NCBI GenBank assembly: GCA_017525025.1
Contig: JAFXUJ010000003.1
Location: forward strand, 62,001 to 126,000
Direction of reading: 5' to 3'
Origin: Elusimicrobiaceae bacterium
Lineage (GTDB): Bacteria; Elusimicrobiota; Elusimicrobia; Elusimicrobiales; Elusimicrobiaceae
DNA length: 64,000 nt
Of this stretch, positions 40,909 to 49,260 are shown piece by piece. The position numbers and the translations under genes were made by a program. The notes under the pieces are model-generated. The model was given only the letters and a program-made list of their open reading frames with translations. It made no database searches and was not told where the DNA came from. The first letter of the stretch is position 1. The number at the start of each line of letters is the position of its first letter.

Positions 40909-42327
40909 ATGCCCAGTCATTTGTTAGAAGAACGTATTCCACCCCAAGCCATTGATGCGGAAATGGCCGTTTTAGGCGCTATGTTATTAAGTGCCGATGC
41001 CGTCAATGACGCAATGGAAATTTTAAAGCCGGAGCACTTTTATAAAGAGGCACACCAGAAGATTTTTGCCGCTATGCAGGCGTTGGTGGACCGCGGCCAG
41101 GCGGTGGACGTTGTTACGCTAAGCGAAGAGCTGAAAAAGAATAACAGATTAGCCCAGCTGGGGGGAGAGGTCTATTTAACACAACTGGTGGACAAAGTAG
41201 CCACCGCGGCTCACGTCAAACATTACGCCGAGATTGTATATAAAAAATACGTCGTGCGAGACCTTATTAAAGCGGCTACCGGCTTGGTACAACGCTGCTA
41301 TAAAGAAGAAGATGACGATCCGCAAATGCTGATTGACTCCGCAGCCGACCAAATTTACCAGCTTAGCCAAAAGCAAAAGTTATCCGGCTTCCTATCTGCT
41401 AAGGAATTGGCCCCGGAAGTTATGAATATTTTGGAAAAGGCTATCCAAAATAAAAATTCTATACAAGGGGTTCCCACCGGTCTGGACGCGTTTGACCACC
41501 GTACAGGGGGGCTTCGCAAGTCCGACTTGATTATTTTAGGGGCGCGCCCCAGCCAAGGTAAAACGGCCCTGGCACTTAACATTGCCCACCACGCATGCGT
41601 GGAATGTGGTATTCCGGTGGCTTTCTTCTCATTAGAAATGGGAAAACAGAGTATTTTTGAACGTATGCTCGGCGCGGCCGCCATGGTAGAAATCCAAAAA
41701 TTACGTAACGGGTGGATGGAAAAAAATAAATGGGGTGATTTAATGCGCGAACTCGGCCGTTTAGCGGCGGCACCTTTTTACATTGACGATACGTCCGGCA
41801 TTTCCATTACCGAATTGCGCATGCGCGCGCGCCGCTTGGCCAGCGAGCTTAAAAAGCAAGGTAAGGAATTGGGGCTGATCGTTATTGACTATTTGCAGCT
41901 TATCCGTGGCGGAGAACGCCGCAGCGAAAGCCGCCAACAGGAAGTATCCGAAATTTCGCGCCTTCTCAAAGATTTGGCCCGTACCCTCAACGTGCCCGTT
42001 TTGGCACTTTCCCAATTAAGCCGTAAAAACGAGGACAAATCCCGCACGGATAATAAGCCGTTGTTGTCCGACTTGCGCGAATCCGGCTCTATTGAACAAG
42101 ATGCGGACGTTGTGGCCCTGATTCACCGGCCTTGGTATTATAAGCGTGATGATATGTCGCTTGAAAATAAAGCAACGCTCATTATTGCCAAACAACGTAA
42201 CGGACCGGTGGGGGAAATTGATTTGGCTTTCTTTGGCAAGTATGCCTTGTTTACCAACCCGGCCCCCGAACAGGTAGAAACCGCGCAGGCTGCCGGCGGG
42301 AATACAATGCTTAATTTACCGGAGTAG
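40909..42327 (+). CDS. dnaB: Replicative DNA helicase DnaB
   Basis: A 472-residue hexameric helicase. The N-terminal domain (PPQAIDAEMAVLGAMLLSAD) binds primase. The RecA-like C-terminal domain has Walker A GARPSQGKTALALN, AFFSLEMGKQ (H1a), LIVIDYLQLI (Walker B), the DNA-binding and arginine-finger region LSQLSRKNEDKS and SDLRESGSIEQDADVV. There is no intein. It lies upstream of alr (2 bp apart). The macromolecular partner DnaG is at 23095-24834. Confidence 0.96.
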   Translation: MPSHLLEERIPPQAIDAEMAVLGAMLLSADAVNDAMEILKPEHFYKEAHQKIFAAMQALVDRGQAVDVVTLSEELKKNNRLAQLGGEVYLTQLVDKVATAAHVKHYAEIVYKKYVVRDLIKAATGLVQRCYKEEDDDPQMLIDSAADQIYQLSQKQKLSGFLSAKELAPEVMNILEKAIQNKNSIQGVPTGLDAFDHRTGGLRKSDLIILGARPSQGKTALALNIAHHACVECGIPVAFFSLEMGKQSIFERMLGAAAMVEIQKLRNGWMEKNKWGDLMRELGRLAAAPFYIDDTSGISITELRMRARRLASELKKQGKELGLIVIDYLQLIRGGERRSESRQQEVSEISRLLKDLARTLNVPVLALSQLSRKNEDKSRTDNKPLLSDLRESGSIEQDADVVALIHRPWYYKRDDMSLENKATLIIAKQRNGPVGEIDLAFFGKYALFTNPAPEQVETAQAAGGNTMLNLPE

Positions 42328-42329
42328 TT

Positions 42330-43436
42330 ATGGAAATACCTGTTTTGCGCCCGACCATTGCGGAAGTGGACCTAGCCAAGTTATCCCACAACTTGGCCAA
42401 GGTGCGCGGATTGGTTAAACCGGGGGTAAAATTATTGACGCTCGTAAAAGCCAATGCGTACGGGCACGGATCCGTAGAGGTAAGCCGTTTTTTGGAAGAA
42501 AATAAACTGTGTGAATTTTTAGGAGTGGCTTCGGTAGAAGAAGGCTTACAACTCCGCAACGCCGGTATCAAAACCCCTATTTTGGTACTGGGCAGTATTT
42601 ATCCGTTTGAGGCCTTTGAATATGCAATCAAAAACGATTTGGCCGTTACGATTGCCAGTTTGGAAGCTGCCCAAGCGGTGTGTAAAATTGCCGAGAAGAT
42701 AGGCAAAAAAGCCTTTTGCCACGTTAAGCAAGATACCGGCATGGGGCGCATCGGTACCCGGCGCGGAAAAGTCATGGATGTGATAGATTTTCTTGCCAAA
42801 AACCAACACGTTATTTTAGACGGCCTATATACGCATTTATCCAGCGTAGATACAGACCCGGCTTTTACGGAAGAACAAATCGGTTATTACCGCGATACCC
42901 TTACTAACGTACAACTACACGGTATTTTTATCAATCATCGCCACGTGGCGGCTTCGGCGGCTATTCACGCCCGGCCGGATGCCCATTACGATATGGTCCG
43001 TCCCGGGCATAGCGCCTACGGGTTGGAAGACGGATACGAGCCGGTATTATCATTAAAAACCAAAGTGGTGTATGTGAAAGATGTCCCGGCGGGGGCCAGC
43101 ATTAGTTATGGGCGCAGTTTTATTGCTCCTAAACCCATGAAAGTGGCTACCCTACCTATCGGCTACGGGGACGGTTACTTGCGGGCGTTTTCAAATAAGG
43201 CGGACGTGCTCATCAAAGGGCAACGTTGTCGCGTGCTTGGAAACGTAACGATGGATATGATGATGGTAGATATTACTTCCGTGGCTCCGGTATCGGTAGG
43301 AGAAGAAGTGGTAGTAGTGGGTAAACAGGGCGCGCAGGAAATTACCTGGGCGGAACTGGCTACCTTAGCCGGTACGATAGATTATGAATTATGCACGCTG
43401 CTTGCCGCGCGTGTGCCGAGGATTTATAAAAAATAA
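42330..43436 (+). CDS. alr: Alanine racemase
   Basis: A 368-residue PLP enzyme that makes D-alanine for peptidoglycan. The PLP-binding lysine is in LVKANAYGHGS, the catalytic tyrosine is in ASISYGRSF on the other face, and the substrate-binding region reads GYGDGY. A dnaB-alr pairing occurs in many bacteria. It overlaps the next gene (mlaE) by one base, and all of alr-mlaE-mlaF-mlaD are close, so D-alanine and lipid transport genes probably share a transcript. Confidence 0.93.
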   Translation: MEIPVLRPTIAEVDLAKLSHNLAKVRGLVKPGVKLLTLVKANAYGHGSVEVSRFLEENKLCEFLGVASVEEGLQLRNAGIKTPILVLGSIYPFEAFEYAIKNDLAVTIASLEAAQAVCKIAEKIGKKAFCHVKQDTGMGRIGTRRGKVMDVIDFLAKNQHVILDGLYTHLSSVDTDPAFTEEQIGYYRDTLTNVQLHGIFINHRHVAASAAIHARPDAHYDMVRPGHSAYGLEDGYEPVLSLKTKVVYVKDVPAGASISYGRSFIAPKPMKVATLPIGYGDGYLRAFSNKADVLIKGQRCRVLGNVTMDMMMVDITSVAPVSVGEEVVVVGKQGAQEITWAELATLAGTIDYELCTLLAARVPRIYKK

Positions 43437-44212
43437 TGTTTAGCGCGATCGGTAGATATATGTCTAATTTGTTTAGCCAGGTGGGCGGAGCGACGGCCAT
43501 GGTCCGTTCCTCTGTATTTTGGCTGTTTCATTCCCGTTTTGAGTTCCACCAGTCTGTGGAGCAAGGTATTACCATTGGGGTGGAGTCGTTTGGCGTGGTG
43601 GCGCTGACCAGCCTGTTTACCGGTATGGTGCTTGCCCTACAGGCCGGAAATACCATCGGCAATATTTTTGGTGATCCTATTTTTGTGGGAACGATTGTTG
43701 CGTTTTCGTTGATTCGTGAGCTTGGGCCGGTACTTACGGGGGTTGTTATATCGGGCCGGGCGGGAGCTGCTGTTACGGCGCAAATCGGTACCATGGCAGT
43801 TACTGAACAAATTGACGCCCTTTATACGTTAGGCACAAATCCCATCCGGTATTTGGTTATTCCCCGTATGTTTGGTTTTATTCTCACCATGCCGATACTT
43901 ACCCTATTTTCCAACGTCTTTGGTATTTTGGGCGGTTATTTAGTAGCGGTATACGCGCTTGGAGTGCCCGGAGAAGTCTATTTTACGGATATTACTACTT
44001 TTATGGGCGTATCCGATTTTATGCACGGATTTATTAAATCGTTCCTTTTTGCGTTTATGATCGGAACTGTCTGCTGTTATAAAGGTATCAGCACGCGCGG
44101 CGGGGCGGAAGGAGTCGGTAAGTCCACCACCGGGGCCGTGGTAACGACTATCGTGCTGATTTTGGTAATGGACTATTTCTTAACAGCAATTTTAACTGCC
44201 TTTGGAATTTAA
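43436..44212 (+). CDS. mlaE: MlaE-like permease of a phospholipid ABC transporter
   Basis: A 258-residue integral membrane permease of the MlaE/YrbE (MCE-associated) family. It shows the typical FYQSVEQG-like start (EFHQSVEQGITIGVESFGVV), GMVLALQAGNTIG and the conserved EQIDALYTLGTNPIRYLVIPR motif (coupling-helix region), GRAGAAVTAQIG and a C-terminal MDYFLTAILTAFG. It forms a dimer in the inner membrane that, with MlaF, moves phospholipid between the inner membrane and the MCE protein MlaD. The three genes are ordered mlaE-mlaF-mlaD. Confidence 0.92.
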   Translation: MFSAIGRYMSNLFSQVGGATAMVRSSVFWLFHSRFEFHQSVEQGITIGVESFGVVALTSLFTGMVLALQAGNTIGNIFGDPIFVGTIVAFSLIRELGPVLTGVVISGRAGAAVTAQIGTMAVTEQIDALYTLGTNPIRYLVIPRMFGFILTMPILTLFSNVFGILGGYLVAVYALGVPGEVYFTDITTFMGVSDFMHGFIKSFLFAFMIGTVCCYKGISTRGGAEGVGKSTTGAVVTTIVLILVMDYFLTAILTAFGI

Positions 44213-44214
44213 AT

Positions 44215-44979
44215 ATGATAGAAATACAAAACTTGCAAAAACAATTTGGCGATAAGCAAGTGCTTAAAAACGTAAACCTCAAAATAGAAGAAGGTAAGGT
44301 TACGTGTATTTTAGGCGGTTCGGGTTGCGGGAAAAGCACCCTTATTAAGTGTATGATCCGGCTGGAAGATGCCACGAGCGGGAAAATTTTGGTGGATGGC
44401 AAGGATATTACGCAAATTAAAAGCGAAATCAAATTGGCCGCTATTCGCCGGCATTTTGGGTATTTGTTTCAGGAAGGGGCGTTGTTCGATTCTATGACGG
44501 TGGGGGAAAATGTATCGTTTGGTTTAAAATATTTAACCGACGTTCCGGAAAGCGAATATCCCCGAATTGTCCGTGAGAAACTGGCCCTGGTCGGTTTAAA
44601 AGAAGATGTAGCCAACTTAAACCCAAGTGAACTTTCCGGCGGGATGAAAAAACGTGTATCGCTCGCGCGGGTATTAGCTGTTAATCCCAAGGTAATTTTG
44701 TATGACGAACCTACTACCGGGTTGGACCCGATTATGTCGGATATTATCAGTGATTTGGTATTGGATTTAAAAGCCAAGCTGGGCGTAACTTCGGTAGTGA
44801 TCACGCACGACATGCACTCGGCTTTTAAAATTGCCGATTATATTGCTTTTTTGTACGAAGGAAAAATTTTACTTTACGGCACGCCGGAAGAATTCCGCAA
44901 AACGGATAACCCGTACGTAAAGCAATTTGTAAACGGATCGAGCCACGGGCCGATTCAAATGAAACTCATGCGGGAGTAG
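44215..44979 (+). CDS. mlaF: MlaF-like ATP-binding protein of a phospholipid ABC transporter
   Basis: A 254-residue ABC ATPase with Walker A GGSGCGKST, Q loop FGYLFQEGALFD, signature LSGGMKKRVSLARVL, Walker B VILYDEPTTGLDP and switch His in VITHDMHS. The C-terminal extension after the ATPase domain (YGTPEEFRKTDNPYVKQFV) is as in MlaF. It lies 3 bp after mlaE. The SGGMKKR and EGALFD signatures favour the MCE-associated branch over other ABC families. Confidence 0.93.
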   Translation: MIEIQNLQKQFGDKQVLKNVNLKIEEGKVTCILGGSGCGKSTLIKCMIRLEDATSGKILVDGKDITQIKSEIKLAAIRRHFGYLFQEGALFDSMTVGENVSFGLKYLTDVPESEYPRIVREKLALVGLKEDVANLNPSELSGGMKKRVSLARVLAVNPKVILYDEPTTGLDPIMSDIISDLVLDLKAKLGVTSVVITHDMHSAFKIADYIAFLYEGKILLYGTPEEFRKTDNPYVKQFVNGSSHGPIQMKLMRE

Positions 44980-45014: not shown

Positions 45015-46310
45015 ATGAAAGCAGAAACGAAATTAGGTATTTTTACGGTATTAGGGTTGATCGTGTTTGGTTTTTCTCTGTATTTTTTAGGGGGAATTTC
45101 CGTTACGCGCACGTATGATTTGAACATCAAATTTGATGATGTTTCCGGTTTGCCTGTTAAAGCTCCGGTAAAACTTTCCGGGGTGGAAGTAGGAAAAGTA
45201 AAACAAATTAAAATTGAAAACGGCGAAGTAATCGTTGTGGCGCAAATTGACAAAGGAATTGATTTCCACCGCGGGGCGCAGTTTTCCGTAGTGATGACGG
45301 GCATTATCGGCTCTAAATACTTAAAGGCCGTACAAGGGGATACGAATGCTCCGGTATATAAATCCGGGGAATATGTAAACGGACTCAATGAATTGCCGTT
45401 AGACGTTATGATGACGCAAACTATGACGAGTATTAAGCAGTTTGTGGATAGCGTCAATAACCAAGGGGCCTTTGGCGAACGCTTAAACGAAACCATGGCC
45501 GAAGTGCGCCAACTGTCCGTAAACCTTAATCAAATGGTGGCCACTATGCGCCCGTACATGACGCGCACCATGGAAAATTTAGATTCCGCCAGCTACCGCT
45601 TGAATGATTTAATGGCTAAAGCGGATGCGCTTATTACCAGTTTGGAACAGGGGGAAGGCGTGATCGGCAGTTTGATTAAAGATCCCGAAATGAAACAAGA
45701 CGTTAAAGCAAGTGTCAGCGATCTTAAAGATACCATGGCGGAAGTTAAAACGTTTGTGGGTAAAGCAAGCCGTTTCCAAGTGTACTGGGATTATGATTTC
45801 TTCTACGCGCCCGAGCCGCGTGTAGCTTCCAGTGATTTGGCCCTTGAAATCTTCCCCGGGAGCGGATATACGTTCTACCGCGTAGGGATGGCCAATTTGG
45901 GTAACGAAGACGACCGCCTGGACAGCAAAGACTATTTGGAGCGCAACAAAATAGATGCCCGCTTGGGTTTGTATAACGAATGGGCCAAATTCTCGGCCGG
46001 GTTAATCCGCGGGGGCGGCGGGGTTGCGTTGGAGCTTAAACCTTTCTACAAAACCAAATTCTTGGACCGCTTGACCGTGGGTGGAGAATTTTACGATTGG
46101 GGACGCGACCGCGAAATCAACGGGCGTCATTTCAGCAAGCCTAATGTGAACTACGGGGTAGATTTGCGTCTCAACAAATACTTTACCGTTGGGGCTTGGG
46201 CGCGCGACGTGCTGGAAACTCACGACGTAGCCGTCAAAGCCAATATCTCGTTTAACGACCAGGATATTTCTTCGTTCTTTGGGCTGGCGGCGATGGCCGG
46301 TTCCCGGTAA
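45015..46310 (+). CDS. mlaD: MlaD-like MCE protein with a C-terminal beta-rich domain
   Basis: The 431-residue protein starts with a single transmembrane helix (about 8-26), followed by one MCE domain (about 35-115; VSGLPVKAPVKLSGVEVG, ISVMTG-like segment SVVMTGIIGSKYLKAV). A long helix-forming region (about 130-250; with repeated heptads) follows, then about 175 residues (254-431) of alternating strands, for example VYWDYDFFYAPEPRV, LGLYNEWAKFSAGLI, LTVGGEFYDWGRDR, VGAWARDVL and VAVKANISFND. E. coli MlaD is only 183 residues and lacks this part. The C-terminal region resembles an outer-membrane barrel. AAAGGAT is the ribosome-binding site. Confidence 0.88.
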   Translation: MKAETKLGIFTVLGLIVFGFSLYFLGGISVTRTYDLNIKFDDVSGLPVKAPVKLSGVEVGKVKQIKIENGEVIVVAQIDKGIDFHRGAQFSVVMTGIIGSKYLKAVQGDTNAPVYKSGEYVNGLNELPLDVMMTQTMTSIKQFVDSVNNQGAFGERLNETMAEVRQLSVNLNQMVATMRPYMTRTMENLDSASYRLNDLMAKADALITSLEQGEGVIGSLIKDPEMKQDVKASVSDLKDTMAEVKTFVGKASRFQVYWDYDFFYAPEPRVASSDLALEIFPGSGYTFYRVGMANLGNEDDRLDSKDYLERNKIDARLGLYNEWAKFSAGLIRGGGGVALELKPFYKTKFLDRLTVGGEFYDWGRDREINGRHFSKPNVNYGVDLRLNKYFTVGAWARDVLETHDVAVKANISFNDQDISSFFGLAAMAGSR

Positions 46311-46321
46311 AAGAGAAATAT

Positions 46322-47689
46322 ATGAAATTTAAAACGGTTTTCGTATGTCAAAAATGTGGGTTTGAATCTCTCAAATGGGCCGGCAAATGCCCGGATTGCG
46401 GGGAGTGGAACTCCCTTGTGGAAGAAGTAAAAGCACAAGAGAGCAAAAAAGCTCCCGCACGTACGCGCAGCTTTACGGATTTCTCTTCGGAAGTGGTTAA
46501 ACTGTCGGAAAGCCAAGCTGTCAAAGAAACCCGTATTCCTACCCACGTGGAAGAATTTGACCGTTTGCTCGGCGGCGGGCTTGTTAAAGGGCAACTCACT
46601 TTATTGGCCGGGGCGCCCGGTATCGGCAAGTCTACGCTTATGCTGCAAGTAGCGGCGGAACTTTCCAAAACGTACAAAGTGCTTTATATTTCGGGAGAAG
46701 AAAGTGTCAACCAAATCTCCGGCCGCGCGCAACGCTTGGGCGTAAAAGGTGATAATATTTTCTTGCATTGCGAGACGGATATCCAAAAAATTGTGGAATC
46801 GGTTTCCAATGTAAATCCCGAAGTGTTGATTTTGGATTCTATCCAAACCGTATATCACCCGGAATTTACTTCCTCTGCCGGCACGGTGGCGCAGGTGCGC
46901 GAATGTACCAGCGAACTTGTGCGCCTGTGCAAGCCTAAAGGTATTATGACGTTTGTTTTGGGGCACGTAACGAAAGACGGCGAACTGGCCGGACCGAAAA
47001 TTTTAGAGCACATGGTAGATTGTGTGCTTTATTTTGATACGGAAAAGGATAACGTCCTGCGCCTTTTGCGCCCGCACAAAAACCGCTTTGGTTCTACGGA
47101 TGAAATCGGTTTGTTCCGTATGACGCAGCAAGGGCTTGTGTCGGTGGAGAATGCCAACGAATTTTTTGCCGAAACGTCGCGCGAACGCGCGTTAAAAGGC
47201 CGCGCGTATTCACTTTCTTTAGAGGGTTCGCGTCCGCTACTGACCGAAGTGCAAGCCCTCGTTTCGCCCACGCGTTTCCCGTATCCGCGGCGCGTGGCTA
47301 CCGGGGTAGATTTGAACCGTTGCTTAATGCTTTTTGCCGCGCTTGAAAAACATATTGGGCTATCACTAGATAACAAAGATATTTTTGTCAGTTTGGCCGG
47401 TGGCGTAAAATTAAAAGACCCGGCCCTTGATTTAGCCATTTGCGCGGCGGTAATCAGTTCGTGCAAGGATATTCCGCTCCCGCACGATAGCGTTTTTATG
47501 GCCGAGGTCGGCATTTTGGGCCAAGTAGCCAAGGTGCCGCGTATTGATAAACGCCTGGACGAAGCCCGCCGCTTGGGTTTTAAAAAAGCGTATACTTCTC
47601 TCGTCAATAAAGATGAAAAAAAGAAACTGGGCGATTTAGCCTTGCTGGAACTAACTGACCTAAACGATTTAGCCGTTAAACTACGTTAG
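46322..47689 (+). CDS. radA: DNA repair protein RadA
   Basis: A 455-residue RecA-like helicase that drives branch migration. It has the N-terminal zinc finger (CQKCGFESLKWAGKCPDCG), Walker A GAPGIGKST, the RadA-specific KNRFG motif (HKNRFGSTDEIG), and a C-terminal Lon-protease-like domain with SLAGGVKLKDPALDLAICAA and EVGILGQVAKVPRIDKRLDEA. The length is standard. It lies 11 bp after mlaD and just upstream of the cysteine-repeat genes; in many Firmicutes radA precedes a yacL-ispD-ispF group, and here the yacL-like gene lies about 3 kb downstream. Confidence 0.94.
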   Translation: MKFKTVFVCQKCGFESLKWAGKCPDCGEWNSLVEEVKAQESKKAPARTRSFTDFSSEVVKLSESQAVKETRIPTHVEEFDRLLGGGLVKGQLTLLAGAPGIGKSTLMLQVAAELSKTYKVLYISGEESVNQISGRAQRLGVKGDNIFLHCETDIQKIVESVSNVNPEVLILDSIQTVYHPEFTSSAGTVAQVRECTSELVRLCKPKGIMTFVLGHVTKDGELAGPKILEHMVDCVLYFDTEKDNVLRLLRPHKNRFGSTDEIGLFRMTQQGLVSVENANEFFAETSRERALKGRAYSLSLEGSRPLLTEVQALVSPTRFPYPRRVATGVDLNRCLMLFAALEKHIGLSLDNKDIFVSLAGGVKLKDPALDLAICAAVISSCKDIPLPHDSVFMAEVGILGQVAKVPRIDKRLDEARRLGFKKAYTSLVNKDEKKKLGDLALLELTDLNDLAVKLR

Positions 47690-47697
47690 GAGCCCTT

Positions 47698-48579
47698 ATG
47701 AAAAAAATAATTCTCTGTGTAGCTGTTTTATTGACCGTTTTGTGCGGTGTTGCCCGCGCGGATGTAATAATGCCGACTCGTTCAGAAAAGGAAGATGCGT
47801 TTCGCCAAGCTCAGAAGAGCCTTAAGACAATGGCGGCTGTTTTTCCACCCAAAACAACATCGAGGAAAATATATTTTTGTCGTACACTTTCCGACCTTAT
47901 GAACGCTAGCCCCAAAGAATGGATGCCGGGAATCCCGGCTAAAATAGATTTTTCTTCTTTAGAAAAATGGTCTCAAAAATATAATTGCCAACAACTTTTA
48001 AACGCTCATCAACTCACTAACGAAGAAGAATTGAAACAATTGCGGGATCTTCCGAAAGAGGAACGTTGGTGGCGGTGTAAATTCATCCGGTCCTATTACA
48101 GCACCTTGAATAATCAGCGGGAAAGAGTTTTGGATTGCGATACGATTGCCAAAGATAAATTAGAAGAAGAAAAACAGAAAATCAATGCCGTTATCAAAAA
48201 GGCTACGGCCCATTTTCCCGTTACCACCAAAACATCAATCTGTGCTTGCCGGAAACTTTTAAGCTTACAGAAACATGGCCCTGAAATAAGTGTAAAATAC
48301 ATCGGGCGCCGGAATATGTTTGAGTTAACGCCAACGGCTCCGTATTTTCCGCATTGGGTTTTCGGAGATCCTTTTGTTTATTTGCCAAGTAATTTAAATT
48401 GTGAAGAACTATCTCGCCAGCATTCCAATTTTTCTACGCTAGCCTGCCCGGATGACACCCCCCAAACGGTTGAGAAGAAAAAAACGACTCCTAAGGAAAC
48501 GCCCGAAGCAAAACCGACGGGAGCGACTCCTAAAGAAACAGAGAAAACAGAAATGGTTATTGAGTTTGAAAGAGGATAA
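47698..48579 (+). CDS. Secreted cysteine-repeat protein A, unknown function
   Basis: A 293-residue protein with the signal peptide MKKIILCVAVLLTVLCGVARA, almost the same as that of the next gene. The mature part contains paired cysteines spaced through it (FCRTLSD, YNCQQLL, WRCKFIR, LDCDTIA, CACRKLL, LNCEELS, LACPDD), probably forming disulfide bonds in the periplasm or outside, and a Lys/Pro/Thr-rich tail with a repeated TPKET unit. No enzyme motif is recognisable. It lies 9 bp after radA and 3 bp before its paralogue, in a row of co-directional genes. GGAG provides the ribosome-binding site. Confidence 0.75.
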   Translation: MKKIILCVAVLLTVLCGVARADVIMPTRSEKEDAFRQAQKSLKTMAAVFPPKTTSRKIYFCRTLSDLMNASPKEWMPGIPAKIDFSSLEKWSQKYNCQQLLNAHQLTNEEELKQLRDLPKEERWWRCKFIRSYYSTLNNQRERVLDCDTIAKDKLEEEKQKINAVIKKATAHFPVTTKTSICACRKLLSLQKHGPEISVKYIGRRNMFELTPTAPYFPHWVFGDPFVYLPSNLNCEELSRQHSNFSTLACPDDTPQTVEKKKTTPKETPEAKPTGATPKETEKTEMVIEFERG

Positions 48580-48582
48580 CTT

Positions 48583-49260
48583 ATGAAAAAAATAATTCTC
48601 TGTGTAGTTGTTTTATTGACCGTTTTGTGCGGCGTCGCCCGATCAAATGGAGTACCCTTATCGGTACGTTACATGCAGGATGCAGATGAGTGTATAAAGT
48701 TGGACAAAAATGATGCAAAATGGAAAGCATTTGGTTGTGATAAATTGGGGGCAAGTTTGTCACATCAAGGACGCATAGGATTGTGTAAAGAACTGAGGAC
48801 CGGGATGCGTGCCCCCAAATGTTCAGACATAATGGGTGGCAATAATGTAGACCCCAAATGGGTAGAGGATTTCAAATACCGGCTTGCGCACAACGATAGC
48901 ACTCATCCTGTTCCTTTATGTACGGACTTGGGGCCGAAGCAGTATCAACCGGCGTGGGAATTACTAAAATGTGAAAAATTATTGCAAAGTTTAACTGCGC
49001 AGCAATCAGCACAATCCCTTAAACAGCCGGTTCAAGTTTTCCCCGAACAACAAGAAACAAATATTATTGAACTGCAAACGATAGAACGGATAGAGACAAC
49101 GTCGCAAAAGCCCCCGGAACTACTTACAACCCCCATTGAAAAACAACCTCAACAGGATTATTTGTATTACGGCTTGATGGGCGCGGGCGTGTTCCTCCTA
49201 TGCGGATTTGCCCTGTGGTTACTCCTCCGTGCGCGCAAACAAAATCCATCGGGCAAATAA
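48583..49260 (+). CDS. Cysteine-repeat protein B with C-terminal membrane anchor, unknown function
   Basis: A 225-residue paralogue of the upstream gene. The signal peptide (MKKIILCVVVLLTVLCGVARS) differs by only a few bases from its neighbour's. The mature part repeats a C-x2-L ... W ... C-x2-L ... SL pattern (CIKLDKNDAKWKAFGCDKL, CTDLGPKQYQ with CEKLLQSL), with CKELRTGMRAPKCSDI between them. A Gln/Thr-rich linker and a single transmembrane helix (YYGLMGAGVFLLCGFALWLL, about 193-215) with a basic tail follow, so it is predicted to be anchored in the inner membrane with the cysteine domain in the periplasm. The function is unknown. Confidence 0.75.
   Translation: MKKIILCVVVLLTVLCGVARSNGVPLSVRYMQDADECIKLDKNDAKWKAFGCDKLGASLSHQGRIGLCKELRTGMRAPKCSDIMGGNNVDPKWVEDFKYRLAHNDSTHPVPLCTDLGPKQYQPAWELLKCEKLLQSLTAQQSAQSLKQPVQVFPEQQETNIIELQTIERIETTSQKPPELLTTPIEKQPQQDYLYYGLMGAGVFLLCGFALWLLLRARKQNPSGK

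What the first reader, a model, noticed from the sequence alone, without database searches (positions are those of the whole stretch)
45015..46310. MlaD with a fused C-terminal beta-rich domain: possible trans-envelope lipid bridge
After the usual transmembrane helix and MCE domain, the protein continues with a long helical segment and about 175 residues of alternating amphipathic strands ending the protein. E. coli MlaD stops after the helix. Fusions of MlaD to a beta-barrel have been described in diderm Firmicutes, where a single protein is thought to link both membranes. The operon has no separate mlaA, mlaB or mlaC, consistent with a self-contained route.
Basis: partly seen in the sequence, partly recalled or inferred. 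Interest (0 to 1): 0.62.

Follow-up and report, generated by a model that had tools for sequence, protein, structure and literature searches.

The report
MlaD fused to outer-membrane barrel
This gut Elusimicrobiota genome encodes a lipid-transport protein that is anchored in the inner membrane and probably reaches across the cell envelope to a barrel in the outer membrane; this design was published in 2023 for other bacteria, and here it proves to be the usual form in another phylum.

Summary
The ORF at 45015-46310 (+) encodes a 431-aa MlaD: TM helix, MCE domain, ~115-residue helical segment, and ~160-residue C-terminal beta domain. It ends an mlaE-mlaF-mlaD cluster. It is the genome's only MCE protein, and no MlaA, MlaC or STAS_2 (MlaB-type) protein was found genome-wide. 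AlphaFold2 gives the isolated C-terminal domain ten long strands (pLDDT 72, pTM 0.72). Foldseek's hits are almost all outer-membrane barrels, led by a designed 10-strand transmembrane barrel. The helical segment has a strong 3.5-residue repeat, and its length changes by exactly seven residues among 47 relatives, as expected of a packed helical tunnel.

It is not new in kind: Veillonella parvula MlaD has the same architecture, with fractionation evidence (PMC10665443). What is added is phylum scope: 180 of 199 Elusimicrobiota genomes have MlaD, mostly 420-500 aa, at a conserved dnaB-alr-mlaEFD-radA site; one lineage has short, barrel-less versions. In one genome the same site instead holds mlaA-mlaC-RND genes and no MlaD was found: possibly a natural swap of bridge for shuttle. 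Transport direction remains inference.

The parts
43436..44212 (+). mlaE: inner-membrane permease, 258 aa
   Evidence: PF02405 252 bits, cut-off 22.5; TIGR00056 242.1 bits, cut-off 212.2
44215..44979 (+). mlaF: ABC ATPase, 254 aa
   Evidence: PF00005 128 bits; MlaF model NF008809 201 bits, below its 441-bit cut-off; position next to mlaE and mlaD
45015..46310 (+). mlaD, long form with C-terminal barrel, 431 aa
45021..45089 (+). N-terminal transmembrane helix, residues 3-25
   Evidence: hydrophobic stretch in sequence; helix in AF2 model
45108..45332 (+). MCE domain, residues 32-106
   Evidence: PF02470 57.5 bits; Foldseek matches E. coli MlaD MCE crystal structures with target-normalised TM-scores up to 0.86
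45399..45743 (+). periplasmic helical segment, residues about 129-243, with heptad-type (3.5-residue) periodicity
   Evidence: linker length 123 or 130 residues in all 47 relatives, i.e. one heptad apart
45774..46256 (+). predicted 10-strand outer-membrane beta-barrel, residues about 254-414
   Evidence: AF2 on the domain alone: pLDDT 72, pTM 0.72; Foldseek top hits almost all outer-membrane barrels
46257..46307 (+). C-terminal tail DQDISSFFGLAAMAGSR after the last strand; D415 and G423 kept in 33 of 33 phylum-wide sequences
   Evidence: low model confidence here
40909..43436 (+). dnaB (40909-42327) and alr (42330-43436): conserved upstream neighbours
   Evidence: synteny
46322..47689 (+). radA: conserved downstream neighbour

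Best explanation
The gene encodes a long MlaD of the Veillonella type. Six copies probably form an MCE ring on the MlaE-MlaF ABC transporter in the inner membrane. Their helical segments pack into a tunnel across the periplasm, and their C-terminal 10-strand barrels insert in the outer membrane via BamA. ATP-driven MlaEF would then move glycerophospholipid along the tunnel, most likely from the outer to the inner membrane, with no MlaA or MlaC. The barrels are probably anchors, since a 10-strand barrel is too narrow for lipid passage. Shown here: the domain order, the genes present and absent, and the predicted fold. Inferred: hexamer, membrane insertion, tunnel, substrate and direction.
For: mlaE-mlaF-mlaD are consecutive. 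MlaA, MlaC and STAS_2 are absent and there is a single MCE protein in a 99%-complete genome. The C-terminal domain models as ten antiparallel strands and its best structural match is a designed 10-strand transmembrane barrel, followed mainly by invasin/intimin barrels, porins, OmpX, OmpA, NspA, OmpW and OMPLA. A weak Pfam match to the outer-membrane barrel family PorP_SprF appears in 3 of 47 members. BamA is present to insert a barrel and LpxC to make lipid A. Helical periodicity of 3.5 residues has power 136 against a shuffle mean of 9, and no shuffle reached the peak over all periods. The linker is 123 or 130 residues in all 47 relatives, with 4 length changes on the tree, each by exactly 7. 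V. parvula MlaD has the same layout (419 aa, ~150-residue helix, ten-strand barrel), its separated domains fractionate with inner and outer membrane, and its deletion gives outer-membrane defects (PMC10665443).
Against: Foldseek E-values for the barrel are modest (best 0.0019, TM-score 0.49-0.61). The full-length model has low confidence (pLDDT 59), chiefly in the helices. No multimer model could be run. The protein lacks the usual C-terminal aromatic residue of many barrels and carries a 17-residue tail after the last strand. The authors of the Veillonella paper found barrels in only about 10% of MlaD sequences and leave their function open. LptD and TamB were not found by Pfam here, so the envelope differs from both models.
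Confidence: 0.78

Rival explanations
1. The barrel inserts in the outer membrane, but the system exports lipid (anterograde) or carries another hydrophobic substrate rather than retrieving phospholipid.
For: Direction cannot be read from sequence. TamB, a candidate anterograde carrier, was not found in this genome by Pfam, so MlaEFD could be the only identified bridge. MCE systems carry other substrates, such as sterols and fatty acids in mycobacteria (general knowledge, PMC9882608).
Against: Deletion phenotypes of the same three-gene system in V. parvula indicate retrograde traffic (PMC10665443). Other AsmA-like proteins were not searched for.
Confidence: 0.15
2. The C-terminal domain is a soluble periplasmic beta domain, for example one that binds lipid or peptidoglycan, and does not enter the outer membrane.
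For: The alternation test is also passed by the soluble MCE domain. One lipocalin fold (nitrophorin, rank 36) and a few other soluble folds appear lower in the Foldseek list.
Against: At least 29 of the 30 best Foldseek matches are outer-membrane barrels or designed transmembrane barrels. Hydrophobic residues favour one face in nearly all of the ten strands.
Confidence: 0.06
3. An assembly or gene-calling artefact fused two reading frames.
For: None found.
Against: The same fused ORF is present in 46 other assemblies and in 27 of the 30 best phylum-wide loci.
Confidence: 0.01

Closest known systems
Veillonella parvula MlaEFD with trans-envelope MlaD (PMC10665443)
   Same: Three-gene mlaE-mlaF-mlaD set, no MlaA/MlaC, MlaD of similar length (419 versus 431 aa), helical spacer and ten-strand C-terminal barrel
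   Different: Different phylum; genomic setting is dnaB-alr-mlaEFD-radA rather than mlaEFD-tolC-tamB; shorter helical segment (~115 versus ~150 residues); no TamB found
E. coli MlaFEDB-MlaC-MlaA
   Same: MlaE, MlaF and the MCE domain of MlaD are homologous
   Different: No MlaA, MlaC or STAS_2; MlaD carries a long helix and barrel, where E. coli MlaD (183 aa) stops
Mycobacterial Mce1 (8fed, 8fef) and E. coli PqiB helical tunnels
   Same: MCE ring followed by long helices that form a hydrophobic tunnel
   Different: One MCE domain and one gene here, with a full barrel per subunit instead of one strand per subunit

Membership tests
MlaD / MCE protein family (PF02470) | MCE domain over curated cut-off | tested here: met
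   57.5 bits against 25.1
Proteobacterial MlaD equivalog (TIGR04430) | score over 135 bits | tested here: not met
   67 bits
Trans-envelope (Veillonella-type) MlaD | TM helix, single MCE domain and long helical region | tested here: met
Trans-envelope (Veillonella-type) MlaD | C-terminal ten-strand outer-membrane-type barrel | tested here: met
   prediction only:
Trans-envelope (Veillonella-type) MlaD | operon with mlaE and mlaF; no MlaA or MlaC in the genome | tested here: met
Trans-envelope (Veillonella-type) MlaD | outer-membrane localisation of the barrel domain | not testable with these tools
   needs fractionation
Trans-envelope (Veillonella-type) MlaD | homohexamer with closed tunnel | not testable with these tools
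   no multimer prediction available; heptad periodicity is consistent with it
Canonical six-component Mla system | MlaA and MlaC present | tested here: not met

The most novel reading that the evidence does not exclude
In Elusimicrobiota the barrel-bearing MlaEFD bridge can be replaced in place by a shuttle-type system: in one genome (G087, locus L085) the dnaB-alr-...-radA site holds mlaA, a MlaC/HpnM-like gene and an RND transporter instead of mlaEFD, and no MCE protein was found. This would make bridge and shuttle natural alternatives for one job.
Probability: 0.3. Interest if true: 0.55.

Novelty: new member of a known kind. Interest (0 to 1): 0.33.

Why it matters
It extends the trans-envelope MlaD design to almost a whole phylum of gut and environmental bacteria; the main text of the 2023 survey does not name this phylum, and reports barrels within its larger clade (Gracilicutes) mainly in some Proteobacteria and close relatives. 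A phylum with long, short, decayed and possibly swapped versions at one conserved chromosomal site is a good system for asking what the barrel is for.

Tried and rejected
tblastn of the protein against plasmids found no match covering the barrel. A profile of the C-terminal domain against PDB sequences gave one unexplained hit (7jwb_D, an antibody-domain chain, 42 bits in 3 stretches), judged not to be an informative homologue. Pfam finds no family for the C-terminal domain of the window protein; PorP_SprF is only marginal in 3 of 47 members. Structure search with the full-length model was swamped by the MCE domain, so the domain was modelled alone. Chain-wide alternation of hydrophobicity is only weakly significant (p 0.045); the within-strand test is stronger. 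The heptad rule for linker length holds in the window's close relatives but not across the phylum, where linkers range from 118 to 156 residues. Promoter and terminator scans gave no more sites than shuffled sequence.

Full report
What is there. The ORF at 45015-46310 (+) encodes 431 residues. It is preceded by mlaE (43436-44212) and mlaF (44215-44979) and followed by radA. The MCE domain (PF02470) covers residues 32-106 at 57.5 bits. The protein scores only 67 bits on the proteobacterial MlaD equivalog model, whose cut-off is 135, so it is an MlaD relative but not the E. coli type. Relatives named in the database are Elusimicrobium and Elusimicrobiales. The genome is 1.55 Mb and 99% complete, with a single MCE protein.

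Missing partners. MlaA, MlaC and STAS_2/MlaB are absent genome-wide. Each search detected the family in E. coli, so the searches work. BamA and LpxC are present, so the cell should have an outer membrane with barrels and make lipid A. LptD (C-terminal Pfam domain) and TamB were not found, although an LptA/LptC-like domain was. A published survey likewise reports LptD missing from Endomicrobiaceae of the same phylum (PMC11257099).

The C-terminal domain. AlphaFold2 on the full protein gave ten long strands at 254-414 with moderate confidence. On the isolated domain, with 47 sequences, pLDDT rose to 72 and pTM to 0.72. Foldseek against the PDB ranked first a designed 10-strand transmembrane barrel (E 0.0019), then mainly invasin and intimin barrels, porins, NspA, OmpX, OmpW and OmpA. 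E-values are modest but the class of hit is consistent. Within the strands, hydrophobic alternation is far above shuffled (3.32 versus 1.50, p 0.0002); the soluble MCE domain shows it too, so the fold search, not the alternation, carries the argument for a membrane barrel.

The helical segment. Residues 129-248 show a sharp 3.5-residue periodicity: power 136 against a shuffle mean of 9, and the peak over all periods exceeds all 300 shuffles. The distance from P128 to W258 is either 123 or 130 residues in all 47 close relatives, exactly one heptad apart, and the tree needs four length changes. This fits a register-locked helical bundle such as the MCE helical tunnels. It does not extend to the whole phylum, where lengths are not multiples of seven apart. 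At 1.5 A per residue, about 115 helical residues would span about 17 nm before the MCE ring is added.

Phylum scope. In 199 Elusimicrobiota genomes, 180 carry an MCE protein, including 141 of 143 good-quality ones. Most listed open frames are 420-500 aa. Of the 30 best loci, 27 are long, and their C-terminal domains align with conserved residues such as W258, D274, P281, Y288, N294, N311, G318, G329, G336, D415 and G423. The order dnaB-alr-mlaE-mlaF-mlaD-radA is kept in the window's relatives and in distant phylum members. Families f11, f12 and f13 have 270-302-aa versions that match only the first ~240-250 profile positions, i.e. no barrel; in the three checked (f11, f12) the gene sits at the same site.

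Exceptions. MlaA occurs in 2 and MlaC in 4 of the 199 genomes. In G087, which has no MCE match, the site between alr and radA holds MlaA (202 bits), MlaC (136 bits; HpnM-like) and an MMPL/RND transporter (HpnN-like) on one contig. This looks like an in-place exchange of the bridge for a shuttle system, but it rests on one genome, MlaE and MlaF were not searched for genome-wide there, and the substrate could be a hopanoid. G188 carries MlaA next to an RND gene elsewhere and keeps a long MlaD.

Comparison with the known. The Veillonella study described exactly this architecture, with ten strands, a helical spacer, loss of MlaA/MlaC and domain fractionation, and proposed that MlaEFD is the ancestral core (PMC10665443). 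Its main text does not mention Elusimicrobia; its supplementary tables could not be read here, so the phylum may already be listed there. The finding is therefore a new member of a known kind.

Mechanism. The most likely working model is ATP-driven phospholipid transfer along a hexameric MlaD tunnel whose barrels anchor it in the outer membrane. The barrel is too narrow to pass a lipid (stated in PMC10665443 for V. parvula), so lipid probably enters beside or between the barrels. Direction is taken from V. parvula phenotypes and is not shown here.

Noticed in passing
L085:3458-7440 (genome G087, contig C96): mlaA, a mlaC/hpnM-like gene and an RND (MMPL) transporter lie between alr and radA, the site that holds mlaEFD in the other phylum members examined; no MCE protein was found in that genome.
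   Followed up: partly
L081, L082, L083 (families f11 and f12), also L053, L073: MlaD of 270-302 aa without barrel, at the same conserved site in the three checked; several of these genomes have a second MCE protein and no MlaA or MlaC. What links them to the outer membrane is unknown.
   Followed up: partly
L092:6165-7171 (genome G017, genus code g30): Truncated mlaF (160 aa) and mlaD (180 aa), with mlaE not detected; several small genomes coded in the same genus lack MlaD altogether, which looks like decay of the system during genome reduction.
   Followed up: no
47698-48579 and 48583-49260 (+): Two adjacent ORFs with nearly identical signal peptides (MKKIILCV.VLLTVLCGVAR) and no Pfam match, downstream of radA and not found at this site in the relatives examined.
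   Followed up: no
L102:2366-6883 and L104:881-5263: mlaC-like gene, a TolC-like gene and an RND transporter in one cluster, in genomes that also have MlaD; a possible separate lipid or hopanoid system.
   Followed up: no
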